NCBI GenBank assembly: GCA_032622095.1
Contig: CP136069.1
Location: forward strand, 4,822,976 to 4,886,975
DNA length: 64,000 nt
Direction: 5' to 3'
Source: Siphonodentalium dalli
Taxonomy: Eukaryota > Mollusca > Scaphopoda > Gadilida > Siphonodentaliidae
Shown here: positions 14,301 to 63,204 of the stretch, one piece after another
Layout of the letters: each line of letters begins with the position of its first letter
How positions within the stretch are numbered: position 1 is the first letter of the stretch
Notes under the pieces: generated by a model
Told to the model about the DNA's origin: nothing
What the model saw: only the letters and a program-made list of their open reading frames with translations
Databases searched by the model: none
Position numbers and translations under genes: made by a program

Positions 14301-17300
14301 CATGTTCTCCATCATGACTGCTTTCAAAAGTGGAAAATGATGTACAGTAATGCCCTAAATAATCGACTCCTTAACCACAGCAGAATTATGGGTAACTTTT
14401 CAGGATTTAGTCGGAAATATGGCTTGTTGCCATTCATCGGAAACGTCTCACAGAGCTTTCCGGTGAATGGCAACAAGCCATATTTCCGACTAAATGCTGA
14501 AAAATTGCTCTTGATTCTGCTGTGGTTAAGGAGTCGATTATTTAGGGCATAACTGTATTTCATTGAATTATCCTTATTGATATGGAAATGTGGGGGTTTT
14601 TTTTGTCCATCTCAACCATGGGTTATCGGATCTGAATGAAATTTGCTATGGATGTTCGCCATCATGACATGCTTTCGAAGAGGGGCAAATGACATTGTTC
14701 GCTTTCTCCGTTCTACATTTATCCTTTCCTTTATAAGGAATTGTTGGTTTTTTGTCCATTCGCAGCTGCATCCACGCAGATATCTCAGCCATGGGTTATC
14801 GGATCTGAATGAGATTTGATATGGATGTTCACTATCATGCTTTCAGAGGGGCAAATGACGTTCACGTTTTCCATTCTAGAGTTCTCTTTCTTTGTTGATC
14901 TGGAAATTATATTGTTTTTTTGTCCGTCGACATAGATATTTATTTCAGCCATGGGTTATTGATCTGAATGTAATTTGATCTGAATGTAATTCGGTATGGA
15001 CGTTCGCCATCACAACCGCTTTCAAAAGAGTACCCAATGACCTTGTTTGAATTTTTTTGCCTGAGTTATGGCCCTTCGTTCATCAATTTTCTCTTGATAT
15101 TTTCTGTCCGGCTTGATAACTCAAATAAATATCCCGATTTTTTTTGCCTGAGTTATTGTTCTTAGTTTGGCAATTTTTCACGCGTTTTGTCCAAAATTAT
15201 GTTTTTAGCCATTTTTTTAATGACTTATTTTACGAAGGACAGAATTGCAGAGGTCCTCAGAATTTGGGTTCTTACCTACCCATAATTGAATTTTCCACTG
15301 TGGGGGTATGCCAGCACTGTGGGGCCAGTACTGTGGGGGGTATGCCAGCACCATGGGGTGTGCCAGCACCGTGGGGGTATGCCAGCACTGTGGGGTATGC
15401 CAGCACCGTGGGGTATGCCACCTCTTTGGGGCCAGCACTGTGGGTGTGCCAGCACCGTGGGGTATGCCAGCACCATGGGGTATGCCAGCACCGTGGGTGT
15501 GCCAGCACTGGGGTATGTCAGCATCGTGGGGTGTGCCAGCACTGTGGGGTATGTCAGCACTGTGGGGTGTGTCAGCACTGTGGGGTGTGTCAGCACCGTG
15601 GGGGTATGCCAACCCCTCCAGTGCAACCTCTTGTTTTGATTACCCTCAGGAAGCGATAGCATCATGTTTTGAGAGAGAACAGCCTAACCTTGGTAGTGTA
15701 GAGAAATGTTACTTCCATCAAATGCCACCCTTACTGCTTCCAAAACGAGATCGACTGGCTATTCTTTATCTCGAGGATTCGTCATCGGGAATATTTTTAA
15801 CTGATGATGATATCGGTGAAATTTTGATTTTAACATATTACACATCTCCTTATGACTACATATGCATACACTATCTATTTTTCTCCTTCTACAACATACA
15901 TGTATACTATTTAAATATCTAATTTAACCCTTTGGCTATAAACTTCATTCGGCCTATTGCATACGCTCCTAATTACTTTCTAAAATGTTAATGGCCCAAC
16001 ATCAGGTTACGGTCTTTGTACTCCCATTTGTTAACTGTGATGGCAGTGTTTTTGCTGTGATTTATAACTATATATACTAATTAGACCCCTTGCAAAACTC
16101 TTCATCGTAGTTATCACATGGCATACACAGCCTTTATGTGAGCAGCATTTCTAATTTTATACTCCGCCGCTAAGCTACCAATTATCTTCTGTACATTTAA
16201 TTGACATACTATTAGGGTACTTGTAGCCTACTGCACGGTATGTATCCAGGAAATATCATTGCTTGTATGCATACCAGTGGTTTAGAGCCTACCTATGGTC
16301 TAGCGACATTCCTAGCAACCAAGCATTGAAATAGCATGTCTGTCATTTGCAGAATGAGGTCCCCAGAGGGTGAATTTAGTGATGCTACCCGCATAGCGGG
16401 CTAACATCACCAAATTCACCCTCTGGTACCTCATTCTGCTTACACCTCAGCAGAATGAGGTTCCCAGAGGGTGAATTTGGTGATGCTAGCCCGCTATGCG
16501 GGGTAGCATCACTAAATTCTCCCTCTGGGGACCTCATTCTGCAAATGACAGACACGCTATTTCAAGGCTTGCTAGCAACCCTTGAATAATTTCACAACAG
16601 GAAGCGATAGCATCATGTTTTGAGAGAGAGCAGCCTAACCTTGGTAGTGTGGAGAAATGTTACTTCCATCAAATGCCACCCTTACTGCTTCCAAAACGAG
16701 ATCGACTGGCAAAAGCACTGAACGACATGGGTATCGTACCGACAGTGCCGGAAGGTGGTTACTTCATGCTGGCTGATATATCCAAATTCAAAAGTAAGTT
16801 TTATAGCGAGGAGATAGACAGTTCATTTCTAATTTAAAGATTAATTATGTACTTATTCGGGTTATTATTATTTTATTTATAAAATGATAAAATTGTTAAA
16901 GAATGTAAGAAACAATTATAAAAATGATAAAATTGTTAAAGAATATAAGAAAAAATTATAAAATTGTTATAGAATGTAAGAAAAAATAATATTAAATGAT
17001 AAACATTGTTAAAGAATGTAAGAAAAACAAAAAATGATGAAAATTGTTAAAGAATATAAGAAAAATTGATAAAAAACAATAAACAATTGTTAGGCCAATG
17101 CATTCTCTAATATATGCGAGGCAACCTATGGTCGACTCGCAATTATAAGAGAATGTATTGGCACAGGGTCTTTAACCCTTTCAGTGCCAAGTCCGATTTT
17201 TGTATCAACCCATATTTCCTTGATCATTTTTCACATTTATTGATTATAATAATGTGATACATTGATGGAAAGAGCTCTAACTCTAAGAGCTCTTTCCATC

Positions 17301-20300
17301 AATGTATCACATTATTATAATCAATAAATGTGAAAAATGATCAAGGAAATATGGGTTGATACAAAAATCGGACTTGAGGATACATGTGTCATGGCCGCGA
17401 CGAGGAAGGATTGTCACTGGAATGATTGCTCGTTTATTTAATGTTTTGCGCGATTTGTAAATAGCTGCTAGGCGATGGACAATTTCATAATGTGCCGAGT
17501 GGTTTTGCCGTGAGCATGGAACTTCATTCTAGTGTTGTCTTGAACTCTGCCGACAGTAATTCGTGACATTTCAGCCGGCTTCATTTGCCGCCAATGCACG
17601 GAGTTAGGGAAGGCCGCAGCCATGTTGGATTTTTAAAATAATTTTTGTGTGTTTATTTTTAAATATTTTATTTCGGACTAGTTTTAGTCAATGTCAATTT
17701 TATTGTGCTGGTGCAGTTGAAGAGTGTGAAATGTGTTATATTCATCATTCTGCCACTGTGGACTTTTAATGGGAGCCTGGATCTTCGTTGTGTACATGCG
17801 TTACACCAACTCTATCATGGTGGATTTTATGTATACAGAGTTTCGCAGTGTACCGATCTGAATATGCGCTACACCTTGCTTTGGATACAGAGTTTCGCAG
17901 TGCTCCGGTCTGAATATGTGTTTATGCATTGGCCTCAAAAAAGCATGGACTTTTATGTATAACAGAGTTTCGCGGTTCACTGAACTGAATATGAGTTTAT
18001 CTCATTGCCTGGTGTACAGAGTTTCGCGGTTCACTGATCTGAATATGCGTCGATACATTCACTTTACCATGGAAGAGCTTGCCCAGGTGTACAGAGTTTC
18101 GCTGGTGAATTGTTCTCTGAAAGACTCGGTGCCTTGTGTGATGACAGTTCACGTTTCATACCCTCCATAAACAATTCTTTCGGAACTTTCGGACTCACAT
18201 TCTGCGCTATTGTACCAGCTCTGTAAAAAATTGTGCAGGACTACATGTTTTAAGGAACTATCTTTGTTTTATATTGATATTTATAGTCTTTTTACATGTA
18301 TTACCCCATATGGGGGTGCGTCGTAAAATCATCGGCGGAATCTAAATAAACCATACCATACCATACTTGGCACTGAAAGGGTTAAAGAATTCACCTCTTG
18401 TAATCCAATGAGTATTATGCAATGAAAGAAAACATTTAAACCCCAATACCATCAGTAAACACATATTCAATTTCATAAATGCTCAATCACACCACCATGC
18501 CACAACCATATCTATAACACCACCATGCCACAAGCATATCTATCATAGTATGGTACACATAGTGTCGACGTCCAGATTGGCCACTCATCGCTCAACTATA
18601 CAGCAATCCAATATTCTAACTGAACTAGTGTGTGACATATACAGTAATGCCCCAATTAATCGACTCCATAACCACAGCAGAATTATGGGTAATTTTTCAG
18701 GATTTAGTCGGAAATATGGCAACACTCTGACTAAATCCTGAAAAATTACCCATAATTCTGCTGTGGTTATGGAGTCGATTAATTGGGGCATTACTGTATA
18801 TGTCACACGGTATTTCAGCGAGACATTCTATTCCATGTTAATATACATGTAGATTATATTGCGGGTCCCTTTGGTCACGCTATATATTTATAATGAAATT
18901 CTTATCCTTTGCCTACAATAGAAAGCGTTTCTCAAAATGGACCTCTGTGCATGTGCGAAGAAACAAACCCCCTGTCACCAACTTGGCTGCTAAAGTCAGA
19001 GGTATGAACATGTGACTCATTCGTAGATGCACAATTCTAGTTATTTTTTGCTTTGATCGCCAAATTTCGAACAAAATTTACTTCCCATTTTCTACGCATG
19101 CGCGAAGAAACAGACCCTCTCATCAGTTTGTCTGTCAAAGTCACATGGGTAAACATGTGAGGCGTGTGTTCAAAGTAGAAGTGCAACTCTAGTTGATATG
19201 TGCGTTTATTGAGCTGTAATTTCGTGTCAAATATCGTATGATTTCCAGACCGGTATTCCGGTCTCCCGGGATATAGGAATATAAGGATTGGACCGATATT
19301 CCGGTCTCTCGGGTTCAAAGGGTTAATAATAATTAACATTTGTTATTTACAGGCATGAATTTACCACTAGATGATACAGATGATGCCTTTGACGTGAGAT
19401 TCATTCGATGGATGACTAAAGAAAAGGTTTGTGTCTGCATAAGAGGAAAATGCTCAAGTCTCCGTTATGTTAGCTTATTACTCCGTTATGTTAGCTTATT
19501 ACTCCATTATGTTAGCTTATTACTCCGTTATGTTTTACTTATTACTCCATTATGTTAGCTTATTACTCCATTATGTTAGCGTATTACTCTGTTATGTTTT
19601 ACTTATTACTTCGTTATGTTAGCTTATTACTCCGTTATGTTAACTTATTACTCCGTTATGTTAGCTTATTACTCCGTTATGTTAACTTATTACTCAGTTA
19701 TGTTAACTTATTACTCCGTTATGTTAACTTATTACTCCGTTATGTTAGCTTATTACTCCGTTATGTTAGCTTATTACTCTGTTATGTTAGCTTTACTCCG
19801 TTATGTTAGCTTATTACTCCGTTATGTTAGCTTATTACTCCGTTATGTTAGCTTATTACTCTGTTATGTTAACTTATTACTCCGTTATGTTAACTTATTA
19901 CTCCGTTATGTTAAAATATTACTCCGTTATGTTAGCTTAATACTCCATTATGTTAGCTTATTACTCCGTTATGTTAGCTTATTCCAAATCATCCCCAAAT
20001 CAAATTGAATACAATCTCTCATAAAAAGAAAATTTAAAGATGCATAATCCGAATTTCCGCTCCCAAATTACTATTTCCTTGGCTTCGGGGGTAAAAAATA
20101 TTTGATTCGAGTCGAGGAACCCACCCATCAAAGCTCAGTGTTATCTGATATCGATGTTTTAAATCTATTATTTTTCACCACTGATAATTTTAAGTGGCCC
20201 AGTAAAAGTCGACAAGAAGACTTTCTCTGACCAAATTGCGGATGAAGATGGATAACTCTGAAATCAAGTGGCTTTTTTGTGTCGGATATTTAACAAACTG

Positions 20301-23300
20301 GCAAAATTTCGTTGAACCAAATGTTCATAAATAACAGGTTTTGGGCAATTTTATGCAATAGTTGACTGTGGTTAGCACTATTTTTGGGCAATTACTCGAT
20401 TCTGATAACTAAAGCGGCATTTCAAAATTTTTTGTTGTTGTTGGAATCTGATGATTTGGGGACCATCGAATCAGATTGTGTACCTTTAATCAAAATTATA
20501 TTCTAACCTTTTGAACTGGCATCCAGCTTGTATAACAGCAGATATGATTTTAATTTTACATATTTAATAGAGAGTTGACAGCAGATATGATTTGTATTTA
20601 CACATTTAATACAGAGTTGACAGCAGATATGATTTTACATATTTAATAGAGAGTTGACAGCAGATATGATTTGTATTTACACATTTAATACAGAGTTGAC
20701 AGCAGATATGATTTTAATTTTACATATTTAATAGAGAGTTGACAGCAGATATGATTTGTATTTACACATTTAATACAGAGTTGACAGCAGATATGATTTT
20801 AATTTTACATATTTAATACAGAGTTGACAGCAGATATGATTTTAATTTTTACAGAAACTGTCGGGAATCCCGCCATCAGTATTCTATTGCAGAGAACATA
20901 GAAGTCTTGGAGAGAACTTCATACGATTCTGCTTCATCAAGGTACGCTATATATTATAACAATGGATAAGGTATGCTATATATATTATAACAATGGATAA
21001 GGTATGCTATATATTATAACAATGGATAAGGTATGCTATATATTATAACAATGGATAAGGTATGCTATATATTATAACAATGGATAAGGTATGCTATATA
21101 TTATAACAATGGATAAGGTATGCTATATATTATAACAATGGATAAGGTATGCTATATATTATAACAATGGATAAGGCCAAACAAATTTATATATTGTTTC
21201 AATGGCCTCAGCACATTAGATTTCAACCCACGTGTTTAAAGGGTGACTGTACACTAAATCCTGTCATTTAAGGACCATCTCCTTTTATACAAATTTTTGC
21301 AACAAATGAATGAATTTGAGCCATGGATTAGTGCAAAATACACTCATTTGCTCAGATGCAAACAAAATGGTAATTATAATGAAAACTAGGGGATTTCCCG
21401 TCAATATGACAGGTATATAAATGTTCTTCATTACTTTCTGGTCTCCACGGCCACACATCATTTCTATATTAGCAATGGATTGGTCATACTTCTCTTTCAC
21501 CGGAGGCGCGTGGGAACACTTTATTGAACTAAAACTGTATTTTTTACCCCCACCCTACCCCACATATATGCATGCACATTTGGAATGCAACAAAATCAAC
21601 TTGTTATTTTATTACTGTAATTACTAACTGATATAGACTCCATTTGGGAGCGTTTATTCAGTGGCGGAGAGGCCTACGGCCCCCTTTGTGTGCTATATAT
21701 ATGAGCCTATGGCTCGGGAACACTTTTTCACAGAAAAACTGTAGTTTCTACTACCACCCACATATATGCATGCGCATATGGAATGCAACAAAATCAACTT
21801 ATAGTTCTGTATTACTATTATATATAGTCCAGTATAACTGAAACAGAGCCTTTATTCAGCAACCGAGTGGACTGGAGCCCCTTTGTGCGCTTTGCGCACA
21901 TACATTATGATATTTTGAAACAGGCTCCCTTCGGGAGCTTTTATTCAGCAGTGTATATAGGCCTAAGGTCACAGGCCCTTGCACTGCGGCCCATTTGCCC
22001 ACTTCGCGCCCATTTTTAGATTCTATAAAACGTTATTTATCCCACAGGGTTAAAATAAAGACAAACAATGGAATGCGGTTTTAGCTACCTGTTTAGCAAA
22101 ACATAATTACAGGAAGCCGATACATGAATAATAATAAAAACAATTAACAATTTTTGAGGCGCAATAACCGCCGCCATCAAAAACAAACCCCGAAAGGTGG
22201 GGGGGGGGGGGGGGGGGGGGGGCAAAGACATCAACCCTGTGTGCTCTCCAACAACCACGAAAAATGGGAGGGAGGGAGGGTTTTCAAAAATTGGTGACCG
22301 TCTTCTTCGATCGATAAGTTGGAAAGAAAGTTGACACCGACCGCGCCGCTCACCCCTACGTGTAAAAATATAGTTCTCCCCATTCCTGCTCAAGAGTTAT
22401 CCCAATCGCTTCGTGGCCTAATTAACATTTTTCCCAAACTCTCGCGATTCATGATTATGTTGTCAATTTGTCCAAATACTTTATTTTATTTTGCTTACTT
22501 CTTTGGAATTCCATGCGGTATGGCGTATTGGTAGCATAGTGATCTATCGGTGAAATATTTCGCTACCGAACATGTTTGCGTTTCTAAAAGTTTCTGGTTT
22601 AAATCTCCGCATCTGTTTAACCCTTTGGGATAAAATACGTCGCTCTTATACGACTATGTTTTATCAATTTGCCGTCTTCCGTATATGTACTCCTTCGATT
22701 CCACACACAATGAACAACTTTCATAACAAAGACACAATCCATTACTTATATTAACACTGAAGTGGCATATTATAAGACCATTTAGCACCAATTTTCAACG
22801 ACGGTATAGAACGTTCTAGTATCGACTCTACACCCCATGCACTTCCACGGCAAAAGCAACATGCATTAATTATATTCACACTCAAACTGATCTGACAATT
22901 AATTTATAGCGCCCATTTTCAACAACTCTTTGGTAGAGCGCATCGAAATTTTGTCAATACAATAGCAACGCAAGTGTGGGTTTGTGTACGACGTCACATG
23001 ACGTCATTTCGACAAACATCATAAGAAATAGTGTCTACTTGGGTGCAAATACTGCATTTGGGGACTATGTTAGATCTCAGGTTTGCTTTGACCAATCGGC
23101 GTGAAATTTTGTGAGTCACCTTTTACGACACAATATAGACCGTGGTCCAAATTTGAGCTACATTGCACGCATGGTTGAAAAGTTATAAGCGTGCCAAAAG
23201 CGTGACCGAGTTACCCCGCTGGACAAAACAAGTGTCCACTTAACCGCGGTGTGGTTTGCGTTGCCACCGCGGCCGAACTCCAACTACACCGCGGCTCCAC

Positions 23301-26300
23301 CGGCTGACTGCAGTTTGGCCGCGGTGTACTTGCCGTTCGGCCACGGTGTACTTGCTGTTCGGCTGCGGTGTAGTTGCCGTTCGGCAGCGGTGTACTTGCC
23401 GTTCGACCGCGGTGTACTTGCCGTTCGACTGCGGTGTACTTGCCGTTCGGCCGCGGTGCTCAACCGTGGTTACACAAAGTGACACCACGGCCGAACGGCA
23501 AGTACACCGCGGTGGCAGTGGACACTTGTTTTGTCCAGCGGGGTATACCATGCATGGCTGTACTATTTGCGGAACAAAATCAAATGCAGAAGACTTAGCT
23601 CATCATAAACTTCGTCGCAAAGAGCCGAGCCTGCAAATAGTGTGTCTGTCATTTGCAGAATGAGTTCCCCAGAGGGTGAATATAGTGATACTATCCCGCA
23701 CAGCGGGCAATTCACCCTCTGGAAACCTCATTCTGCTTAGACCTCATCTTCTGGGAAGTATCTATAGTATCAAATTAACATTGTTTTAGTTACATTTCCC
23801 TTCTAGGAGGTTTCTATATCCCCTAATTTGCAGAAGATCAAATTCATAATGGAGGTGCCCAATGGGTGAATATCACCAACTTCAACTGGGGAACTTCAAT
23901 CTGATCCTAGGTCTGCCATAGCATTTGAGGGCCTTAGCAGAATGAGGTCCCCAGAGGGTGAATTTAGTGATGCTAGCCCGCTGTGTGGGATAGCATCAAT
24001 AAATTCACCCTCTAGGGACCTCATTCTGCAAATGACAGACACGCTATTTGCAGGCTTGCAAAGAGCCATTTACCATTTCCAAAAGCGCTCAATATGATTA
24101 GAATATGATGATACAGTGCAAATGTCAATTTAAAAATACCTTTTTAGAACAGTTTTAAGCATTTATAAAAATCTCACTATTTTTCCCGGAATCTAATATT
24201 TCCGTCAAAGATACGTTACACACTGAACTACATGGTATATTCATCTTTATTCACAAGAAAGGATTCTATGAGATCCGTTTAAAATTTATTATTTTGGTAC
24301 GAAATAGCTTAAGTACCTTTTGAATCATTATTATTATGACGTAGCAGGTCAAGGTCATTTGTCCACTCGTTATGTATATAAGCAAGTGGACCCACAGTAA
24401 ACGGCCTCTTTTTCTCTTGTGACAAGATTCGAAGGGAAGTAAAAAACTAACGCTATGAGAAATGAAACCACATATTATTGTCGGCTTCATTTAACAATTC
24501 CGTTCCACATTTTTTAACTTGTTGTGACATCGGTTCAATTTTGGAAACGACACAATAATTATTAAATTAATATCAGAGTGACAATTTCATTCAATTTCCC
24601 TGTTTTATTTGTTTTAACGCAAATAAAATACACAAACTATATTGTTCTGTTGAAAATTGTGGGTAATTTCCCAACTTCCGGTTTCGGAGCACGTGGTTTA
24701 GAATTCGGAATTAATTTCGGAATTGCACTTCGTCTGTTTATATGCAGCGGTTCACGTGTTGAACTTTCTGGGACAATGCCTATACAGCACAGTTGTTATG
24801 TTATCTCTGTTTCTTGTGGTTTTAGAATGTAAGTACTAGAACATTCAACCAGTGAGACAACATTGGTTTATAACTTTGTTTATGTTGAAATTGGCACGTG
24901 ACAACATTCGTTTTGTTTACGTCGAAATTCTGAAATTGTCACTCACAAATCTGTTTCATGTTGACATATGTAGCAAAATTAGGGATCAGGTTTGGGTCCC
25001 TTTTCGTTTATCTATGAATTAACTCACTTGTGTGGTTTTGCTTGGCTCATAGTTCACTATGAAATAATTTACAATACATTGAGATTGTTTGCCAACAAAA
25101 TAACTTTTTTGTCAGATCAATATGACACAATTTCACAAATAATAATGTGACGCATCAGTCACCTAATTTCATGGTAAATTTTTGGGTCCCTTTCCTGATC
25201 CTTATACATGTAACTGGTCATACCACAGGCTATTTTCTTCCTCGTGTGGCCTCGGTTTCAGTAACCCCATTGTCAAGCAGGTTCAGGCTAATCCAATTCC
25301 TCGTTCCATGCGGACCTTGAGGTGGCCCAGCCGCATACTTCACCATTGAATTCACTGTAGCCAGACGCCATACTGTTCCGAGGGTGGGTTCCAGTGTTCA
25401 CGGATCCGACCATGCTCGCCCGCTCCTGCTGGATCCTACCTCAGATTTCGTCCTCCCACATCCCTTTCACAAGCATGTGCGATGTACAAAATCTGTCAGC
25501 CCCCTAGGGAGCAACTTAACTGGTATCGCATCACAATTTGCCATCCAAACTTGGATAATAGCCATGCAATTTGGTATGAATTTTATGTCAACTTTGAGAT
25601 TGAGAACAAAATACTATCTCATTATGTCCATGTGAGGCTATTTATTTGATAATCAAAATTTCCAAGTAAGTTGCTCCCTGGCATCTACCCTCGGGTGGAA
25701 TTGCTGTTAAGACCATTTCCCGGGACTCTGCATGACCTTCAAATGCTTGCTATTTGGCGGGAGGCAAGTTGTACCGGTGTAGCCACTGGGGCGGTAGCGT
25801 TTCATAGTCACAATCTTGGGCTCGTGTCATCTAAAAGTTTCGGTTCATTCTATGTATATATGACTGCTCTGCCCATTCAACATGTAGTTCAATGCAGATT
25901 GTGTGCATTTAGAAACACTAGTGGGGTGTCATCCTGTTGGTCAGGTTTCTGGATTCGTGTCGTGACCTAGTAGGTCGCCGCTGCCCTACTGGCTACACTT
26001 CTGCTTCCTGTCAGGGTTTAAGCTGGCTCCGGTTAGGGGGGTAATCAGTCTGCTCATTAATCACTCCTCGATGTCTCTTCCAAGGCTTACACAGTCCTGT
26101 TTATTCAGTTTTTTACTCTAAAGATAACAAAATCCATTGCTTGGATCTGACGATTCCACATTTAGATTACATTTCTAATTAACAGGGCTACTTGCCATCC
26201 AACGCGAATCCTGATTCTCACTTGGATTTCGAAGAGCTCTTGCTGCTTTTTCTTGTCTGTAACAAAGAACTAAGTTAATTGCAAGGCATCGAGGGGTTGC

Positions 26301-29300
26301 AGACGCAGTTTCTCTCCTCGGATATGGGTCCTGGGGGGTTCGAGGGGGGGACCGAGCACTGGGCCACCAGACAGCGCGCCGTCTAATGCCGAGTAATCTC
26401 GGGTGCTGTCTATAACAGTGAACATAGCGCAGTCTTCCGCCGGGGCAGAGACTTTTAACAGACACTCAATTTGTTTTTCATGCAGTTTTACCTGGGCTAA
26501 AACTTATTACCTTTCCACCTGTCACTGATTAGCATTGTCCTTTGTTTATGGGTGACCGTTCGATTCTTCTAGTGGTAAATTTACACAGATCATCTTTCAC
26601 CCTTACTACGGTTCCATGGGGCATAACACCAAGCCTTGGATTCCTTGTAAGATTTTGCGAGCATCACTCGGGCCTTCTGCGGTGTTGGGCTGGGTTTTTT
26701 CTGCGAACCAAGTTGGGAATCATATTTCTCTTTGCGTAGAACATTCATCATCTGCGTAGAACATTCATCATCTTTTGACTCTACAGCCTTAGGACAATCC
26801 CAATGAGCTTTCCCTGTAGTACCAGGATTAGATCTCTTCGCGCTCAATATTATGGCTTTATAGTTTGGGTTCGCTTATCGGGTTACGATATAGACAATTG
26901 AACTCGCGCAATCTTCTGGGGTGGCGGGTACGGTGGGTAATAACCTGTTCCATGGGAACAGGTGCATTTCAGAACTTTGAGCCCTGCGTCATGCCAACAA
27001 AACTCATTGATGCCCTGCTTGATGGAGTTGGGCGTTACTGTACTCAGTGCTCCTTTTTTGACAGGCTGTCTTGAATTACTACACAACAGACGAGCTATTC
27101 GTCTAACGGCGCACATGAGGCAATCTTTGTTGGCGACAGAGTCTCTGCCCGCGGGGAGGAACTAGGGTCCGGGTCCTCGCTGTATGAGCGGCAGACAACC
27201 GTCCGACCATACACACATGTGATTGGTCTTCAGTAAAATGTGCCCTTCTGTTCACATTACTGGCGTACCTCCTTGACCATGTCGAATGGGTGTACAGTGG
27301 TGCTCGGGGTGTTTGGCCGCTTGGCTGCGGCGGAGTTGTGGGTGGTTTTTCGGGATTTGGTCGGTGGTGTGGCTTGTTGCTGTTCATCGGGGGGCTCTCG
27401 ACGAGAGCTTTCCGATGGGTGGCCGCGGGCCGTGTTTCCGGTTGGGTCCTGGAGGGTTGCCCGTGGTTCTGCTGTGGTTGGGTGGTCGGTTGCTTTGGGC
27501 ATTGCTGTGTACTTTCGCCTTGGTGGATGAGGTGAGCTACACACAGCTCATGGACCCGGGCCCTTCGTCTTTTAAGAACAATCAGTGCATAACAAGAAGA
27601 TACAATCTTCTTGTTATCAACATTCTGGTTGTTTTTAGACCTTAATCATCCATGGCCTGTTCTTTCTTTCTGATTGTTTGGAGTTGTTCCATCACGATGG
27701 GTCTCCTCCTTCTACACATTTTCTAATAAGTTACATGCAGACTGCAAAGTATTCCTTTCAATCAGGTGTACATGTAACTGCATACACTATTGGATTGACA
27801 GGCTGTGGAAGTAGTTTACAACTCAGGACTCTCCGAACTTTTTCTTCTCGATTGTTTCGATACCAGAAAACATTTTGGGACTTTCCAAGTCATTTAACGC
27901 TCTTGATCGACTTAGTTACCTGGGGTTTTTGTTACCAGTTTCCAGCCTTAATGTAAATTCCGATCAGGGGCATTGACCGACGGAATATGGCCTCTGTCTG
28001 GTGTATTTATTAACTGAAGTAAAATACTGTCATTTGACGGTCAGTCAGAAAATACTTATTTTGCGCCTTGATCAGTTTGTCCATTTGGGGTTGCACATTT
28101 ACTGACAGTCGGTCGCAGACCTTACAAGCATGATGCATGATACATGAGTTGGTGGTATGTTTCTAATCGTCTTTACAGTTGCTACTTCCTCGTGTTACAT
28201 CCAGATTGACCATTCAGGTAACAATAGATTTCCTTCCTCTGGTGTCGAAACGTCGGGATAGCTTGGTTCGTTCAGTCACATACCATGGAGCTGGGTGACC
28301 TATGCTTTCTGCATATAACCCGCTTACTCCAGGGAGGAGGTGGCACATGCATGTACCTGCATATGAGATTTCACAATTACAGGTTTGTCTGACTTCAGAA
28401 CCAAAGGGGGGAGGTGCAGAGTTTCAGCCATTGGGCTTATTCTCCCACTTTCTCCACTCTACCTGGTAGCATCAATCAAATCTGCAAATCAGTACCTTTT
28501 GATCCATTTGTTGCTAAAAAAACTCAGCAGGTTCAAAAGAATTATTCTCAACTAAAATACAATAGTATCTCATTCCTCGCAGCCTCCTCCTATGAGTTGA
28601 TTCTACCATGTAGTTCAGTGTGTAACGTATCTTTGACGGGAATATAACATTTTCAATAGAAAATACATATTCCCTAATAAGATACTTACACACTGAACTT
28701 ACATGTCCCTCCCAAATTGGGATTTTCCCTCCCCGCTGCTCGGTCACACCCCTCGAATCTTGTAAGAGGATAAAAAGAGGCCGTTTACTGTGGGTCCACT
28801 TGCTTATATACATAACGAGTGGACAAATGACCTTGACCTGCTACGTCATAATAATAATGATTCAAAAGGTACTTAAGCTATTTCGTACCAAAATAATAAA
28901 TTTTAAACGGATCTCATAGAATCCTTTCTTGTGAATAAAGATGAATATACCATGTAGTTCAGTGTGTAAGTATCTTATTAGGGAATATGTATTTTCTATT
29001 GAAAATGTTATTTTTAGCTCACTTGAGACGAAGTCTCCGGTGGAACTATAGTCATTACTCCTCGTCCGTCGTCCGTCCATCTGTCCATCCGTCAACAATT
29101 CTTTGAACATTTCTCCTCTGGAACCGTAAGACCGAATTGGTTCATATTTGGTGTGGATGTTCCCTAGGTGACTCTCATTCAGATTTGTTCAAATGAGGTT
29201 ACTGGGTCAAATAGTAGCGAAACCAGGACCATATAACTATTCCTCCATAGTAATTCTTACAACGACTTCTTGTTCAGAACCATTGGGCCGATTTAGCTAA

Positions 29301-32300
29301 TATTTGGTATGGAGGGTCCTTGGGTGACTGGTGTTCAGATTTGTTCAAATGAGGTCACCCGGTCAATTAGTTGAGAAACCAGGGCCATAACTCATAGTAA
29401 TTCTTAGAATGACTTTTTCTCAAAAAACATTGGGCCGATTTAGCTTATATTTGGTATGGGGGCACCTTGGGTGCTCAAATTCTGGACAGAAAATCCTTAA
29501 TAAGAAGCATTTACTTTGGCTCTAACTGTATGCGTGGTATGCATACACATGTCAAGTGAAATCTGACATTTTTATAAACATTCCCTGGAGATCTGCTAGA
29601 AGTAATTAATTCCTAATTACAACAATCTATCATGTATTGTTCAAATCTTTCAACAGGGCAAATAGCATGCCTGTCATTTGCAGAATGAGGTCCCCAGAGG
29701 GTGAATTTAGTGATGCTATCCCACACAGCGTGCTAGCATCACCAAATTCACCCTCTGGAGACCTCATTCTGCTTAGGCCTCATCTTCTGGGAAGTATCTA
29801 TAGTATCAAATTAACATTGTTGTTCGTTACATTTCGCTTCTAGGAATTTCTATATCCCCTAATTTGCAGAAAATAAAATTCATAATTGAAGTGACCAATG
29901 GGTGAACATCAACTTCAACTGGGGAACTTCAATCTTATCCTAGATCTGCCATAGCAGTTGAGGGCCTTAGCAGAATGAGGTCTCCATGGGGTGAATTTAG
30001 TGATGCTAGCCCACTGTGCAGGATAGCGTCACTAAATTCACTCTCTGGGGACCTCGTTCTGCAAATGACAGACACACTATCACACTATTTCAAGGCTTGA
30101 TTGTATAATACATTGTGTTGCTTGAGGCCAGGCACATACAATGTAGGAATATGCACACTATTTGCAGGCTTGCTCCTTTGGTGATTGTGATTCAGATTTG
30201 TTCAATCAGGGTCACCAGGTCAAGTAGGTGCAAGGCCAGCTACATTACTCTTTCTCTCCATAGTAATTCATGATGTGTCTTCTATGCAAGAATCAAATGG
30301 CCTATTTTGCTTATATTTGGTATGAAATTACCTTGGATGACAGATTTGTGAAAATAGGATCACAAAGTCAAATAAGGGCAGAGCCAGAGACTTAACTATT
30401 TTACTACACAGTAATTCTTAAAATATGTTTTCAAGAACTAGTTGGCTTATTTAGCATGGAATGTTCTTCCTTGACTGCAATTCAGATTTTTTTTAATGGG
30501 GTCACCTGGTCAAATAGGGGCCAAACGAAGGACAGTTTCCCTCTTAATATGCTTCCTTCACAAGGGCCATCAGGTCTATTTTACTGATATTTATGATATG
30601 TAGGAAGGGTACTTTGGTGTCTGGGATTCAAATTTATTCAGATGGGGTCACCAGGTTAAATAGGGTGGGACCAGGGACATAACTATATGTCTCTATAGTA
30701 ATTCTTAAAATGTCTTCTCAAGAGAGGTTGGACTATTTAGCTTACATATAGTATGGAGCAATCAGGAGGATCCTTTAGTGACTGATATTCAGATTTGTTA
30801 AAATGAGGTCAACCTGTCAAGAAATGGCGGGGCTATGGGGAGTTAACACTTTTGTGTCTATTAAAATCATTGAAATACCAAATTCATTAAAACATCTACC
30901 TTGGAACCACCTGACTGATTAATCTGACATACGTGTATTGTGTTTTGGGTCCATGGATAATTGAGCTTCAAACATGTCTAAATGGTTTTAGAAAAAGGCG
31001 CTTGTGAGATTGGAAATTTCCAACAATTGAGAAAGTTTGAGGTGTCAGTTGTGAAATTCCAACCTAAGACTTGGGAGTCTGGAGCCCGGTCCGGAGGGGA
31101 TATGTTGAGCTGGAGGAGGAGGGGGGTGATCAGTAGTGTACAGTTGGTAATTTCAAGGTTGATTTTCACCAATCTACATACGTGAAGTCTCTCTAGCCAC
31201 ATATCCTGTTTAGAGGTACTTCTTTTAAAGTGATTATGAAAAGTTCTGACTGTTGTGGTCTCCAGAGTCCCAGTCTTATCAGTCTTTGCAGTCTGGTGAG
31301 CGACCCCACAGTCTTTACAGTCTGGTGAGCGACCCCACAGTCTTTACAGTCTGGTGAGCGACCCCACAGTCTTTGCAGTCTTGTGAGCGACCCCACAGTC
31401 ATTGACTGTCTTGTTTAAAGGGAATCTCACAATTTCTGACATTATGTAGACTGTGCACACTATGTACTCTAGCTTTAATAATGAAATCGCACAAACAATA
31501 AAACCTATTTGTGATAGTGTGTGGAAGCATAATAAAATTCTTATTAAGATAACAGAAACATGCATAACCAATGAACTCAGTATAAAGAGCGTTTATATTC
31601 AACTCGCGTGGAACCCAATAGCTGTTAGTGCTTTATATATCATGCATCAGTATATATATCTTATTTGCGCAAATTTAACTACTTATAACTGTTATGGATG
31701 GGATAATACCAGTAAAATATATGGTAAACTCGGTACCCATTATACAGAAGGACGTGGGACTTTCTTGCTTATTTTATTTCAACTTTCTGACTGATTCTGA
31801 AACTGCCTATACAGCAGGGTGCTCTGCCTATCATTAGCTTATGTCAGCTTCCGGTGGGTAAGACATGATACCTCTTGTCATGGACACAAGTGTCATTGGC
31901 CATCCCCCTTACTCACATATGTGGGTCATAAAAAGCATAATATCAGATGGAAGCATGCACTACAGAGTGTCGTCTGCTCAGTCTGTGTGGGGCTCTCTAT
32001 GGGATAATTAAAAAAAAAAATTAAAAAAATGTAAGAAAAAGTAAAAATTAATATAGAATAAAAAACAATTGATAAAAAATGATAAAAAATTGTTAGGCCA
32101 ATGCATTCTCTTATATATGCGAGGCGACCTATGGTCGACTCGCATGTATAAGAGAATTTATTATATGATCTTATATGCTTCCCTATCAAATTCTATTGAT
32201 TTCTTGTTCAAGTAAAAAGCTATATTTCGCTAGTCGAGCGCCCAACTGTGCGCCAACGTTATATTCCACTGCAGATTCCTTATATTACACGGTAGCTTCC

Positions 32301-35157: not shown

Positions 35158-35374
35158 TACAGTAATGCCCTAAATAATCGAATCCTTAACCACAGCAGAA
35201 TTATGGGTAATTTTTCAGGATTTAGTCGGAAATATGGCTTGTTGCCATTCATCGGAAAGCTCTCAGTGAGAGCTTTCCGATGAATGGCAACAATCCAATT
35301 TTCTGACTACATCCTGAAAAATTACCCATAATTCTGCTGTGGTTAAGGAGTTGATTATTTAGGGCATTACTGTA
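35158..35374. mobile_element. TA-flanked foldback MITE (CAGTAATGCCC family), copy 3
   Basis: The element is 35,160-35,372 (213 bp) with TA on both sides and long palindromic arms around 'agctctcagtgagagct'. I used this copy as the ungapped reference for the hypermutated element at 27,295. Confidence 0.9.
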
Positions 35375-35817
35375 CATCGTGTCAAACACGAACCGTCTCA
35401 AAGATGATTATATCTACCCTATTCCTACACTATCTACCCTATTCCTACACTATTCCTGTGTTATATCTCTATATCAGACATGTTTATTTCTGTCAATAGG
35501 ACCAACTTACTACAAATCTGACGGCTGGTTCATTTGAGACAAAGACCAGTCAAAATGCACAAAATTCAGCAACAACTTTCTTAGTTTGCAACAACTTTCT
35601 TAGTTTGTAGTTCAATGAAATGAAAGTTAAATTTTTATATAAATATACATTTATCTCCAATTGGATACAAAATGGTGAATGCAATCCATTGTTCACATAC
35701 CGAAGTAGTGATATGTATTTGATGATGTCTTTTAAAATTGATGTTTATAAGTCGGTGACAATAATGTGCACTGAAACTTGTTATAACGCTAAAAATATTT
35801 CTTTAACTTTGAGTTTA

Positions 35818-38144: not shown

Positions 38145-40304
38145 GCTACAAAATTATTCATCAGCATATATACTCTTATAAGCCAGAATATACCTGAAAT
38201 TTAGTCATATATTGATATTTTCATTCAGCTATTATTACTTCCGCTTCTTCCCATAGCGTTTTGATAGTCACGTCTTCTAAGTCAATTTGTTCAGTGACAA
38301 TCCTGAAGATTCTGTCATATTAACAATGTTTAGTCTAATGAATAACCACACTCAACAGAGTGCCACAGATAATCTGTCTCGCGGCTAAATTGTGAATTTG
38401 AATAACTAAATTAAGATATGGCTTACTTGGCAGATTTCGTCTAAGATTCAGCACACTTTGAATTAATCAATATGAATGATGTTATTCTTGGAATTGCTTT
38501 CGATTTGAATAAATAAAAGATGGCCACCAAGGTCTCGTTACCACAATAGGGTGCCCAACTGTTAGGTCTGAGAAGTTACATTTGAAGTACATACACAGAA
38601 CGAAACAAGTTTGTTGATACGGGTCAAGTGTTTAGCTTGGAAGGAAAGAACGAGAGACGCAGCCTCAAGTTCTTTCCTTCTGCAATGGCACAAGTGCTGT
38701 ATCAACAAACCTACACACATGTTGTTCTGTGTTTATTACACATCACCACCTGTCCTAGAATCCATGAATTAAAAAATATAGGCTTACCTGGGCTTACAGC
38801 GTTTATTTAGTCAAATACAGGACCTGTTTTGTCATGTGTGGTTTTTTCATGGTTGAAGTGAACGTCGTGTATGTCATTACAGATATTTGTGAGTCTGTTT
38901 GCGATGCTGGCAGTATATTTGTTAGGAACTTATGTTTCACTTGCTAACCTGCAGAAATGCACAATATAATCTAATGAGCTATTAATATGTTATGAACCAT
39001 TGATTCTTAAGTATACCATACTACTATTTCATGTTAATGTTGATTTTTGAGTCATGTTAAGAATTTATAAATCCTGATCCGGTGACATTTCCTATAATAA
39101 TCATAACCAAAATATTATATTTTCTTGCAATTAAAAGATGCCACCAGGGTTCTGAAAATCCCCTGAAAATTGTGGAGACTTTGATCTTGATGCTTTCTGT
39201 TGCCAGGAAACTGAGTTTGGCAACTAGCAGTGTTTCCTTGTTTTTATCGCTGACATTCTCTTCCTAGAATCTGTAAATAAAAATACAACCAGACTCCCCT
39301 GGTTTATTTAGGCACACACAGGGCTTGTTTTGTCGTGTGTGATGATGCTTTTATTTTATAGTTCTGGTTTGATGGTTGAGGGGAACACGTGTTCCATAGA
39401 GATTTGTCTATATGGAACAGCGAGAACACTGTAATTCTTGGAACAAGCTTGTAATAAACAGAACACAACACACATCTTAAACTCAAATCTTTTATCGATT
39501 TAGCTGCGGACAGTGCAGGGATATATTTCTCCATAGCTGACAAGTTAAATGTGACTGCGCAACGAGTTCAATAAAAGATTTGAGATTCTGATAGAAGTTG
39601 TGTTCTGTATTTATTCAACACCCTTGAATCAAGTAAGGTCAATCCTTGACTATCACTTTCATTGATACTATAATTGTATAACAATAACGTTAATGCTACA
39701 TCATGCTGAAGTTGTTTCACATGAAAGTGTGTGAAATAAGTCTCTCTTATAAAAACATTGTTCTTGTAATCCTGAAGGCTTAATTTGTCTTCTACTTAAA
39801 TCTATATAGTTTCTATCATGGTTTTATTGGTTGTAAATTGTTGAGATTTCAGATATATTTACTGCAGATGCACATTGACAATAAAATATAATTTCAAAAG
39901 TTTACCTTTCCCTGTTTTCTCTTCTGGGCAGCAACATATTTTTTATAAATCCCGATCTCAGGACTTCAAATAGCTAATTTGTGTATAAAATACAGATAAA
40001 ACTGAAGAATATGTATAATATTTGTCTATAAGGCGTGACCAATTTAATTACTTGTTTTACGAACACCGCCGATAGCTTTTTCCGCCAAAACCGAATAAAA
40101 ATAATACACTTTTCTTCCCAGAGAAAAAATTACGTTTTCCGTATTTTAGTGATTTCGTTCCGCCTACTAGTTGTGTATTCCGGATTATAACGCTCCGTAT
40201 TCCGGCCTTCCGAGTTATGCGTTACGGTTCCGGTTCCGTGACCTTTTGTTTACATCTGTCAGCGTGCATAACTTCCGTTGTTAGTGAAACATGTCCGAAA
40301 TAGA
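38145..40304. other. Intergenic region upstream of the transposase-like gene
   Basis: No supported gene. Loosely repeated phrases occur around 38,620-39,560 ('gttttgtc(a/g)tgtgtg', 'tggttga(a/g)g(t/g)gaac'). The last 150 bp before the ATG are less AT-rich and may hold the promoter; no clear TATA box can be assigned. Confidence 0.4.
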
Positions 40305-40332
40305 ATGGCGACTGCAGATTACTTCAGCTTAA
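40291..40332 (+). promoter_or_regulatory. Overlapping upstream ORF
   Basis: A 13-codon ORF (MSEIEWRLQITSA) starts 14 bp before and overlaps, in another frame, the presumed ATG at 40,305. If transcription begins upstream it would be expected to dampen translation of the main ORF. Confidence 0.4.
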
Positions 40333-40913
40333 AAATACTAACAGACACGCAACGGACGCTGAAGCAAAAGCTAGTTCAATTGAGTCTTTCTGATGTAGTA
40401 TCCGTGACATTTAGTGAGGTGGGCGATGACTTTAAAGTGGATAAAATCACGGTTAAAAACGGTAGTGACTCAACTGATGGCCACGAAGTTCAGCCAAACA
40501 CCCCCCTCAATATTGTTTCCCGATTTGGCGCATCATGCATCATTCTCCACGTCTCAAAGCTGTCAGTTGGTGATGGTGTGTCAGTTTCTAAGAAGACTTT
40601 GGATGCATTCGATGTAATGATGTCGGCACGAAGTGACTCTTGTTACCCAGATAAAGTCGAATTCAAAATAAACAGAAGAGATTTTGATCTACACAACGAT
40701 GTCATCGAACTGTTCAAACAAAAACACTATTCATTTATACCTGAAAACGTCCACACCATAGGAAAACTTGTGATAAAAACTCTGGTGGATGTATTGTGGT
40801 GGATGACCCCACACCATGACAAACTCTTGTCCAGAAACATCAAAATCCCTGAGATGTTCCAACAGTTCACAGGTTATTACGACCATAGGAAGGCGCACAA
40901 AGCTGCACCAAAG
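40305..40913 (+). CDS. Transposase-like gene exon 1
   Basis: 203 codons from ATG (MATADYFSLKILTDTQ...) to donor AAG|GTGAGA. It encodes an N-terminal region with no motif I recognise, rich in beta-type segments (LNIVSRFGASCIILHVSKL). The ATG is preferred because the open frame upstream has only non-ATG codons. Confidence 0.7.
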
Positions 40914-43900: not shown

Positions 43901-44512
43901 AGATTACCTGATGATGTCTTCAATGAGTTGGAATTTGTGCCTGACCCAACTTTCGCAGCACCTGGTGATGATAAGTACTTACCATTCCCTGAAATATACA
44001 GGACGGCAACTACAGATGCAAATCGTCCGTCTGCGTTATCCGTGACTGACTCGACCAAAAACGATATTGCCAACAGGAAACTGTTAACTGCTTGCAGGGT
44101 ACGTGATGCAGTGCCCTGTGTGGAGTGCGATAAACCAAGATGTGTTTATTCAGAAACTAAACTGAAAAAGTCTGAACTGAATGCTCTGAAGGAGCTAAAG
44201 GAGAAGGAGACATACACATGTGGTGCGACACTGTTTGAAGGTGCACTGCATTCAACAGTGGTTGCGAAAGAAAACATAAATTGTAGTTCACAGATGGAGA
44301 CATCATACTATGGCGGGAAGACTTGTAAGCTTGAGCCTGTCTGCTTCCATTGCGGAATTTCAAAATCCGATGACTTTGCCATGGATGATGACATTCAGAA
44401 ACTCCAGTCGGAATATTCAATTGTGCGGCCCATTTGTGTGAGATGCAAGGACTCTGGTAAAGAAGTAGCTGTGAGAGGAAAGCGAAATGTTAAGAAATTG
44501 CGCACAAAATGA
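40305..44512 (+). CDS. DDE-transposase-like protein of an uncharacterised metazoan family, two exons, one frameshift
   Basis: Exon 1 (40,305-40,913) joins exon 2 (41,847-44,512) in phase 0. About 1,090 residues would result, but one base is missing near 42,603-42,608: a TTTGGG run where the surrounding frames require one more T. The C-terminal frame (from 42,605) shows a DDE-like triad: Asp in FLWMDDKA (codon 42,965), Asp in CYTDGGPDHR (43,304) and Glu in WANLAER (43,436), the latter two 44 residues apart. Cysteine pairs at CVYC, PCVEC, VCFHC and PICVRC suggest C-terminal zinc binding. I recall homologues with DGGPDHR in cnidarians, sponges and molluscs, usually unnamed. It could be a transposon or a domesticated gene. 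No terminal repeats were found. Confidence 0.7.
41098..41325. repeat. About 85-100-bp tandem repeat in the intron
   Basis: Two and a half units of 'aaataaaatatggg(g)aa', 'ggtggggcaag' and 'gcctaggaaaggaagt(t)t'. It lies just after the open frame that reads past the exon 1 donor. Confidence 0.85.
41518..41730. mobile_element. TA-flanked foldback MITE (CAGT..ATGTAAGTGGCAA)
   Basis: The element is 41,520-41,728 (209 bp) between TA dinucleotides. The ends share 'aatgtaagtggcaa'-type inverted repeats. The interior is made of short inverted 'caatgcat' and 'cgttgacg' motifs. It sits in the intron of the transposase-like gene and differs from the CAGTAATGCCC family. Confidence 0.75.
41847..44512 (+). 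CDS. Transposase-like gene exon 2 (catalytic region)
   Basis: Acceptor atatttcag at 41,838-41,846. The first frame runs IESSVLKSHIDHM... to a premature stop at 42,636-42,638. The second begins WDEMDTYFNEL at 42,605 and runs to TGA at 44,510-44,512. The switch occurs within KFDKF|WDE, so a single-base indel is enough. The rest of the exon has no further stop, which argues for a young or selected gene, or a sequencing error. Confidence 0.72.
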
Positions 44513-55431: not shown

Positions 55432-55888
55432 GGAATGTCGTGGCAATTATGTCGATCAGCGTCAGATAAAATAGACATGTTTTTATCACATAATCAGCCT
55501 AATGAGACATCCAGACTCATAACAATAGCCTATTGAGACATCCAAGCTCATAACCATAGCCTAGTGAGACATCCAGGCTCATATAATCATAAATGTATAT
55601 ATATGGGGGTCAAATTTGAGAAAATAGTGGAAATTATCAACTCCGAGCATAAAATTCAATAATTTTCTGTTTGTTGAAATATATATACGCATTTTAATAC
55701 GTGTATGTAGGATATTTAGCAGCGAACCAGTTAGAGAACAAATCATGTAGTCTAGGGCCGATTTTACAGACCGTAAATTAGGGCCGATGAGATCGGCCCA
55801 TGGCACTGAAAGGGTTAAGGAATGTCGTGGCAATTATGTCGATCAGCGTCAGATAAAATAGACATGTTTTTATCACATAATCAGCCCC
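55368..55888. repeat. Direct duplication of a TTAA-element end plus flank
   Basis: Bases 55,368-55,500 recur at 55,754-55,888 almost unchanged. The unit comprises the last 60 bp of the TTAA element, its TTAA and about 70 bp of flank ('atgtcgatcagcgtcagat'). Between the copies are three repeats of 'gagacatccaggctcat'-like sequence (55,500-55,580). Confidence 0.85.
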
Positions 55889-55891
55889 AAA

Positions 55892-56012
55892 TACAGTAAT
55901 GCGCTAAATAATCGACTCATTAACCACAGCAGAATTATGGGTAACTTTTCAGGATTTAGTCGGAAATATGGCTTGTTGCAATTCATCGGAAAGCTCTCAG
56001 TGTGTCTTTCTG
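55892..56012. mobile_element. Half copy of the CAGTAATGCCC foldback MITE
   Basis: Left arm only, from TA-CAGTAATGCGC to 'atcggaaagctctcagtg'; the second arm is lost. Confidence 0.85.
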
Positions 56013-56204
56013 ACATACGTTACCTGCTATGAAAGCAAATTAATAATACATGAATAGGTACAGATACCTTCATGAGCACTTATTATATGAGTTTATAAAG
56101 GCCAGACCAAATTAAATTGTTGGTTACGAGCACTATGGACACATGACTACAATAAAGTTAATTTCTGAGGATTGTTCACATCTGAATCGCATCAAAATCT
56201 AGTA

Positions 56205-56421
56205 TACAGTAATGCTCTAAGTAAGCGACTTCTTAACCACAGCAGAATTATGGGTAACTTTTCAGGATTTAGTCGGAAATATGGCTTGTTGCCATTCATC
56301 GGAAAGCTCTCGGGGAGAGCTTTACGATAAATGGCAACAAGCCATATTTCCGACTAAATCCTGAAAAGTTACCCATAATTCTCATGAGGTTAAAGTGTCA
56401 ATTACTTAGGGCATTACTATA
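56205..56421. mobile_element. TA-flanked foldback MITE (CAGTAATGCCC family), copy 4
   Basis: The element is 56,207-56,419, a full palindrome around 'aagctctcggggagagctt'. TA flanks. Few differences between arms. Confidence 0.88.
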
Positions 56422-56552
56422 CACATGTACATTTGAAAATAAAATATGATTTAATTTTTTGAATGTGGCAGGAAGGATCGTAAACCAAATAAATAAATTG
56501 GACTGGCCAAGAGGACTACCTAGTGGAGTACCGGTTAAAGGTTTGTTTTATC

Positions 56553-61945: not shown

Positions 61946-62389
61946 TTATGAACAAAAGCAAGTAGCGGAAAAAATAATTATGTCATAAAGCGACTAGATT
62001 GTAGAGACAAAGATTACTAACGCCACAGACAGGGGTGAAACCAGTGTATGAATTTGGGAACCTATTATAGGTTATATATATTCTATATTAACCAATATTA
62101 AGTGTAAATTTTTTCAACTATTTATTTAAAGCAATATGTAAGTTGATGTGGAAGAATGTGGCATATTTTCCAAGAGAAGCTGTCGTTCTTCCCATTTGAG
62201 CAACAAGTTAGCGGAACTGATATATTACTAAGTAAAATCACCCCTGGTTAAATGGTGCTGCTAATTTGCTATGATGTTGGTGGGTCCTGCTGAATTGATA
62301 TAAGGCAAACTGATGCTGTTAAGTAAAAGTACTTTTATGTTTTCTAATGTTGTCATTTTTTAGGTTTTATTCTCAAGGAGACGCCTTTA

Positions 62390-62500
62390 TACATTAATGC
62401 CCTAAATAATCGACTCCTTAACCACAGTGGAATTATGGGTAATTTTTCAGGATTAAGTCGGAAATCTGGCTTGTTGGCATTCATCGGAAAGCTCTCACTC
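62390..62500. mobile_element. Half copy of the CAGTAATGCCC foldback MITE
   Basis: Left arm only (from 62,392, CATTAATGCCC), ending in 'ggaaagctctcact'. The second arm is absent. Confidence 0.8.
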
Positions 62501-63204
62501 TTATATCCGAACATAACGAGTTGGAGATCCTCTATATCGAGTGCAGCCATTATGAAAATATTTTAAAATAGACATGTTCTTGAATGTTTCATACAGACAC
62601 TGGATTTTTATCAAATCGATTGGATTATCCAAACGCCGTAAAATTTCCAACTTTAGAAAACATAACGGTACTTTTTCATGATAGCATCAGTTTGACCTAC
62701 AAGCATCATAGCCATTCAGCGTGACACTTAACAACCAGGGGTGAAAAATTAAAAATGTTGAACTGCATGCAACAAAACAAAGCTTTATGAGTCATTTTAC
62801 GGCACAAACATGTTATCAATAACACTATGCCTCATTACGGCACAAACATGTTATCAATAACACTAGGCCTCATTTTGAAAACTCAAATTCATTATGCGTG
62901 AAAATAACACCTGAAAGATCGGATAAAAGCAGAAATTTATGGTGATATATAGCATAGTTGTCATGGAAATCATGTAAAAATAGACTGACAAAACTGTTAG
63001 AATCTTGAGATCTCTCAGAGTAATAAAAATATATGTCCTCAATGGGGTGTGGTTATATATATCTTCATTAGCATGTGGATTGTGGATAGATATATCTTCA
63101 TTAGCATGTGGATTGTGGATAAAACTGAGATGTCGAGTTATATTTGGTAATATATTGATTCGAGAAAATGTTAAATCTTTGCGTGCCACAGCCAACCAAA
63201 TGGG

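What the first reader, a model, noticed from the sequence alone, without database searches (positions are those of the whole stretch)
27293..27509. Genomic 'fossil' of ADAR-like hyper-editing in a hairpin MITE carried by a DIRS-like retrotransposon
Seen: an ungapped alignment to sister MITEs (35,160-35,372; 14,345-14,555) gives about 51 A-to-G differences, roughly 80% of its adenines, against a handful of other changes. All lie on the + strand, equally in both hairpin arms; T stays T. Changes stop at the element edges and include the adjacent target TA (now TG). Sister copies in KYAT3 introns are normal. Known: ADARs deaminate A to I (read as G) in long dsRNA hairpins, on one RNA strand across both arms. 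Ordinary DNA mutation or GC-biased conversion would also turn T into C. Inference: the hairpin was edited in the RNA of the surrounding DIRS-like element, whose inferred sense is +, then reverse transcribed and integrated. Near-identical terminal repeats argue against slow decay.
Basis: partly seen in the sequence, partly recalled or inferred. Interest (0 to 1): 0.92.

Follow-up and report, generated by a model that had tools for sequence, protein, structure and literature searches.

The report
Heritable RNA-editing scars in retroelements
A short hairpin-forming DNA element inside copied retroelements carries dense one-strand A-to-G changes, best explained by an RNA-editing enzyme rewriting the element's RNA before it was copied back into the genome, more than once in this genome.

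Summary
In the 217-bp hairpin MITE at 27293-27509, 53 of 66 A became G against 3 of 66 T to C; the surrounding element shows A-to-G at 13 of 517 A. That element has the inverted ends and internal complementary region of DIRS retrotransposons. The scar is not private to this locus: 20 of 20 fetched copies carry it at the same site, so one event was inherited and amplified. MITE-less relatives exist. New: a second, older insertion in the same DIRS lineage was edited separately (45 of 66); a third edited copy lies in a LINE 5' region, and 9 of 10 fetched relatives lack the MITE there; a fourth is a poly(A)-ended copy whose paralogue keeps the unedited MITE at the same place; a fifth candidate has 21 of 66. 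A's after G were more often spared (pooled p 1e-4), as with ADAR. The genome has ADAR deaminase domains. Best reading: ADAR editing of RNA, then reverse transcription.

The parts
27293..27509 (+). Site A: hairpin MITE, A-to-G changed on + strand in both arms; TA target, right copy now TG
   Evidence: folds as one long hairpin, -130 kcal/mol against -197 for the unedited consensus
27287..27292 (+). Left flank with two further A-to-G changes against empty-site relatives
   Evidence: also in L047
24197..29013 (+). DIRS-like retrotransposon without recognisable protein domains (non-autonomous); sense taken as + because the internal complementary region lies near the right end (DIRS rule recalled)
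   Evidence: homology around the MITE in 20 of 20 fetched loci, some of them lacking the left end or internal parts; left end found in 17 of 20; no Pfam match in + frames or in ten ORF pieces
24208..24436 (+). Left inverted terminal repeat
28749..28976 (-). Right inverted terminal repeat
28595..28699 (-). Internal complementary region: its reverse complement reads right end joined to left end
27003..27046 (+). Site B remnant: tips left from an older insertion of the same MITE, largely deleted here; near full length and edited in other copies (L029, L030, L045-L064)
35158..35376 (.). Unedited sister MITE
14343..14559 (.). Unedited sister MITE
56203..56423 (.). Unedited sister MITE
18635..18802 (.). 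Shorter sister MITE
55886..56012 (+). Partial sister MITE
62386..62510 (+). Partial sister MITE

Best explanation
A TA-target, hairpin-forming MITE jumped as DNA into a DIRS-like retrotransposon. In the sense RNA of that element the MITE folded into a roughly 107-bp dsRNA hairpin, and a host ADAR turned most of its A to inosine on the one RNA strand, in both arms. Reverse transcription read inosine as G, and the edited cDNA was integrated. That edited copy founded a young subfamily, so the scar is now inherited at many loci, including this window. The same happened independently to an older insertion of the MITE in the same lineage (site B), to a copy in a LINE 5' region (L065), and in a transcript whose poly(A)-ended copy is L066. 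Shown: the one-strand, hairpin-confined A-to-G pattern, a single founder for site A, empty sites, recurrence, an unedited paralogue, ADAR domains. Inferred: that ADAR did it, that it acted on RNA, and when.
For: A>G 53/66 against T>C 3/66; flank A>G 13/517, Fisher 4e-50. Arms alike. 20 of 20 fetched copies (of 39 others listed) share site and state; five more with an 8-bp loss inside (L039-L043). Empty-site relatives: 40 scored hits (of 286 candidates) at 86-90% across the join, ten read. Site B: 22 of 22 read copies (of 23 listed) A>G 37-45 of 61-66, T>C 2-9 of 62-66; apart from A>G, the window copy and L030 share one derived change, a C>T. L047 carries both sites edited. Flank tree of 32 rows: site-A copies with L047 on one side of a branch, 100/99. 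L065: 33/65 against 1/66; LINE flank A>G 1/57; RT domain on the same strand; 9 of 10 fetched relatives continuous across the insertion point. L066: 20/29 in the arm; one A>G among 7 differences in 179 nt of flank against unedited L079; shared stretch ends in about 22 A on the edited strand. 5'-G: L065 1/13 against 32/51, p 4e-4; site A p 0.018. ADAR domain: 13 matches in four regions.
Against: The 5'-G effect is not significant at site B (consensus p 0.43; L029 and L030 p 0.12 and 0.10) nor visible in L066 (3/5 against 20/29). ADAR does not make the other changes seen: at site A 3 A>T, 4 C>T, 3 T>C among 14 non-A>G changes; site B copies carry 11 to 22 changes other than transitions and one (L062) has T>C 9/65. 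The L065 flank has T>C 6/79. No RNA was examined. DIRS sense is inferred. The poly(A) evidence is for L066, not for site A; its TTCTTA duplication is only 6 nt and its 406-bp loss lacks a clean donor site. The host of L082 was not looked at.
Confidence: 0.92

Rival explanations
1. The changes were made in DNA: a deaminase (ADAR on the DNA strand of an RNA:DNA hybrid, or an unknown adenine deaminase) acted on the MITE in place, on an extruded hairpin or R-loop.
For: One strand, confined to the hairpin; ADAR can act on DNA in hybrids (recalled).
Against: The edited member of the L066/L079 pair is the one that ends in poly(A); the unedited one does not. Ordinary MITE copies abound: the 40 scored match the unedited form at 94-98%; L083 and L084 have A>G 3/66 and 2/50. 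In the contexts identified (two DIRS sites, one LINE, one poly(A)-ended copy) the edited strand is the presumed sense strand.
Confidence: 0.05
2. An older GC-rich MITE subfamily, or slow mutation with GC-biased repair, produced the sequence.
For: The sequence is present at 40 or more loci.
Against: The 20 copies fetched all sit at one site of one retroelement family. GC bias would change T to C equally; it is 3/66 against 53/66. Later changes in the MITE run mostly the other way, C>T 13 and G>A 14 of 45.
Confidence: 0.01
3. Reverse transcriptase itself misread A in the hairpin (error-prone copying, as in diversity-generating retroelements).
For: Confined to structured template; L065 shows a jump-like rearrangement inside the hairpin.
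Against: A-to-G far outnumbers A-to-T and A-to-C (53 to 3 to 0 at site A; 45 to 2 to 5 at site B; 33 to 1 to 0 in L065); different copying routes (DIRS, LINE, poly(A)-ended copy) give the same pattern; A after G is more often spared (pooled).
Confidence: 0.02

Closest known systems
ADAR hyper-editing of exogenous retroviruses, read out as A-to-G changes (RAV-1, avian leukosis virus; named in PMC8586724, passages read)
   Same: A-to-G clusters in a virus that passes through reverse transcription
   Different: Here in endogenous DIRS and LINE copies, inherited through the germ line and amplified; the substrate is a foreign hairpin MITE
APOBEC 'DNA editing' of retrotransposons (PMC2873906, abstract and passages read)
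   Same: Deaminase scars in genomic retroelement copies
   Different: That is G-to-A, from minus-strand cDNA; here A-to-G, confined to a dsRNA hairpin. In the passages I saw, ADAR is discussed for RNA-derived traces, and A-to-G clusters in genomic traces serve as comparison counts
ADAR editing of inverted Alu pairs in transcripts (PMC4982230, passages read)
   Same: dsRNA from inverted repeats is the substrate
   Different: Edits are described in RNA; [quoted passage not shown]
DIRS-1-like retrotransposons (recalled)
   Same: Inverted ends and a complementary region that spells the joined ends
   Different: No RT, RNase H or recombinase recognised in this element

Membership tests
ADAR hyper-editing | Dense A-to-G on one strand, T left as T | tested here: met
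   53/66 against 3/66; 45/66 against 5/66; 33/65 against 1/66; 21/66 against 2/66
ADAR hyper-editing | Confined to long dsRNA | tested here: met
   flank 13/517, 1/57; full hairpin; two A>G just outside the hairpin at site A
ADAR hyper-editing | A after G disfavoured | tested here: met
   pooled p 1e-4; significant for site A and L065, not for site B or L066; L082 not tested
ADAR hyper-editing | Host has ADAR | tested here: met
   PF02137, 13 matches in four regions
ADAR hyper-editing | Inosine or A-to-G in RNA of intact copies | not testable with these tools
   no RNA reads
DIRS order | Inverted terminal repeats and internal region complementary to the joined ends | tested here: met
DIRS order | No target-site duplication | tested here: inconclusive
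   none seen by eye in the 17 of 20 copies with a left end found; not scored
DIRS order | RT/RNase H and tyrosine recombinase | tested here: not met
   no Pfam match in three + frames and ten pieces on both strands; so at most a non-autonomous member
Retrocopy (L066) | Poly(A) at the end of homology | tested here: met
   about 22 A, absent from the paralogue
Retrocopy (L066) | Target duplication and loss of an intron | tested here: inconclusive
   TTCTTA on both sides, 6 nt only; 406-bp loss ends at TTTTGCAG but its other side is no clean donor site

The most novel reading that the evidence does not exclude
Editing is not just a scar but a licence: a long hairpin MITE blocks a retroelement's reverse transcription, and only RNAs whose hairpin ADAR has loosened (G-U pairs; predicted -197 to -130 kcal/mol) are copied on. 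That would explain why no unedited MITE showed up at site A or site B among the 40 scored of 800 and the 40 scored of 1134 candidates (judged from identity and extent of match, not by reading each), and would make ADAR a helper and a heritable mutator of retroelements.
Probability: 0.25. Interest if true: 0.93.

Novelty: new variant of a known kind. Interest (0 to 1): 0.88.

Why it matters
It shows RNA editing entering a genome as heritable mutation and then spreading with a retroelement family. It gives a testable system for whether ADAR restrains or helps retrotransposition, and a search signature (long hairpins rich in G-U pairs on one strand) that can find such scars in other animal genomes. 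Eight answered paper searches listed no paper whose title or abstract start reports ADAR-edited retroelement copies fixed in a genome; three more failed. I opened four papers for passages only, and the library is open-licence literature, so this is weak evidence of novelty.

Tried and rejected
GC-rich subfamily, GC-biased conversion and slow decay were rejected on the strand asymmetry and flank control. Sequencing or assembly error was rejected because the same state recurs at 20 of 20 fetched loci with private later changes. Coding function of the element: no Pfam match. Moderately G-U-rich hairpins elsewhere in the element (22-26% G-U) looked like imperfect folds and were not pursued. Search for an unedited intermediate in the DIRS gave none for either site. 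Hairpins of other MITE families were scanned only in the 295 kb, not genome-wide.

Full report
What was claimed. A hairpin MITE at 27293-27509 inside a DIRS-like retrotransposon was said to have about 51 A-to-G changes on the + strand and to be a fossil of ADAR editing.

Check of the observation. The window holds six further copies or part copies of the MITE. Against them the copy at 27293 has A>G at 53 of 68 A and T>C at 3 of 68 (52 of 66 and 3 of 66 in the alignment). With the majority of 21 copies of its own family in place of the single window copy, the count is 53 of 66 A and 3 of 66 T, with 11 other changes. The arms are alike, 25 of 32 and 26 of 33. Unedited sister rows show 0 to 3 A>G. 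The unedited consensus folds into one continuous hairpin of -197 kcal/mol, the edited copy into much the same hairpin at -130.

The host element. Inverted ends at 24208-24436 and 28749-28976 bound a unit of about 4.8 kb. Its sequence surrounds the MITE at 20 of 20 fetched loci, though some copies lack the left end or internal parts. A stretch near its right end (28595-28699) is, reverse-complemented, the right end joined to the left end. That is the internal complementary region of DIRS retrotransposons (recalled). I saw no target duplication by eye in the 17 of 20 copies in which a left end was found. No protein domain was recognised, so it is non-autonomous at best. The sense strand is taken as + from the position of the complementary region; this is an inference.

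One founder, amplified. The edited MITE occurs at 40 listed places at 97-100% identity (40 scored of 1812 candidates). In 20 of 20 fetched it lies at the same site with the same changes and about 1% private differences. Five further copies share an 8-bp loss inside it. Relatives of the element without the MITE exist: the joined flanks match 40 scored places (of 286 candidates) at 86-90% across the join. In the ten best of these the flanks differ from the window family without A>G excess, apart from two A>G beside the MITE. Over 2.1 kb of flank the A>G count is 13 of 517 A. A tree of the flanks of 32 rows puts the site-A copies with L047 on one side of a branch, support 100/99 (bootstrap not fully settled). 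So the editing happened once, in an ancestor.

A second event in the same lineage. Scanning 295 kb (the window and L009-L038) in overlapping pieces for long hairpins gave 173 hits; 24 had over 40% G-U pairs. Of these, 22 are the site-A hairpin, in 21 of 21 site-A copies scanned, and two lie at another place in L029 and L030. There the same MITE family sits at site B, edited on the same strand. A genome search listed 23 such places (40 scored of 415 candidates). Of 22 read (20 fetched, plus L029 and L030), 22 have A>G at 37-45 of 61-66 A with T>C at 2-9; the consensus has 45 of 66 and 5 of 66. Apart from A>G, the window copy and L030 share one derived change. Sites A and B are therefore separate insertions, edited separately. 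L047 carries both. In the window family site B has shrunk to its tips. In six of L031-L038, the ones where the stretch could be read, it is interrupted by another, hAT-looking insert.

Events outside the DIRS. A pattern for edited left arms that neither site A nor B fits gave two places and none for the reversed control. L065 has A>G 33 of 65 and T>C 1 of 66; 1 of 13 A after G is changed against 32 of 51 others, p 4e-4. It lies upstream of a broken LINE frame with a reverse transcriptase domain on the same strand. Of ten relatives fetched (of 39 others listed), nine run continuously across the insertion point; the tenth starts downstream of it. The LINE flank has A>G 1 of 57, with T>C 6 of 79. 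Its MITE loop holds a 26-bp repeat of itself and a piece resembling upstream LINE sequence, as a template jump in reverse transcription would leave (inference).

The before-and-after pair. L066 holds an edited left arm (20 of 29 A where aligned with its paralogue; 23 of 34 in a longer alignment). A paralogue 2.3 Mb away, L079, has the unedited MITE at the same site; 179 nt of flank differ at 7 places, one of them A>G. The shared stretch in L066 begins sharply, lacks 406 bp ending at an acceptor-like TTTTGCAG, and ends in about 22 A with TTCTTA on both sides; the unedited copy has no such tail. L066 is thus most likely a retrocopy, and the editing lies in the copy that went through RNA. The lost part does not begin with a clean donor site, and L079 itself lacks the MITE loop, so L079 is a paralogue of the source, not the source.

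A further candidate. A second pattern gave nine places. Two are L065 and L066; of three more fetched, L082 has A>G 21 of 66 and T>C 2 of 66, in both arms, and L083 and L084 are ordinary, 3 of 66 and 2 of 50. Four places were not fetched. The host of L082 was not examined.

Enzyme. The genome has 13 matches to the ADAR deaminase domain in four regions. The review PMC8586724 (passages) states that A after G is a weak ADAR target. Pooled over sites A, B, L065 and L066 the avoidance has p 1e-4. It is carried by site A (p 0.018) and L065; it is not significant at site B and not visible in L066.

Known background. The same review names A-to-G hyper-editing in RAV-1 and avian leukosis virus. PMC2873906 (abstract and passages) shows APOBEC scars in retrotransposons and discusses ADAR for RNA traces. 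PMC4982230 (passages) calls a role of ADAR in Alu subfamily evolution undetermined. Eight answered searches listed no germ-line ADAR scar by title or abstract start; most listed papers were not opened.

Verdict. Whether editing merely marks such elements or lets them be copied is open; no unedited MITE turned up at site A or B in the scored candidates.

Noticed in passing
L065 (C5:87837800-87840200), reverse strand 1245-1517: Insert in the edited MITE loop made of a 26-bp repeat of the loop and a piece like upstream LINE sequence; looks like reverse-transcription template jumping
   Followed up: partly
L031-L035 and L038, site B: About 1-kb hAT-looking insert (TAGGGGTGCCACGATTAGTC...; name recalled) inside the old MITE; the stretch could not be read in L036 and L037
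   Followed up: no
site-B copies L029, L030, L045-L047, L050, L053, L061 against the others: A/G differences at positions 42 and 212 of the MITE split the site-B copies; could be a second round of editing
   Followed up: no
window 23709-24047 and 29745-30080: Two related repeat stretches (91-97% alike) flank the DIRS element about 6 kb apart
   Followed up: no
window 49938-51851 (-): ORF of 638 aa with reverse transcriptase domain (PF00078)
   Followed up: no
window 40278-44509 (+): Three ORFs of 275, 251 and 632 aa without Pfam match
   Followed up: no
window 23287-23462: GC-rich tandem repeat of 22 bp
   Followed up: no
C5:215049300-215049640 (L082): Fifth MITE copy with A>G excess (21 of 66) whose host was not examined
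   Followed up: partly
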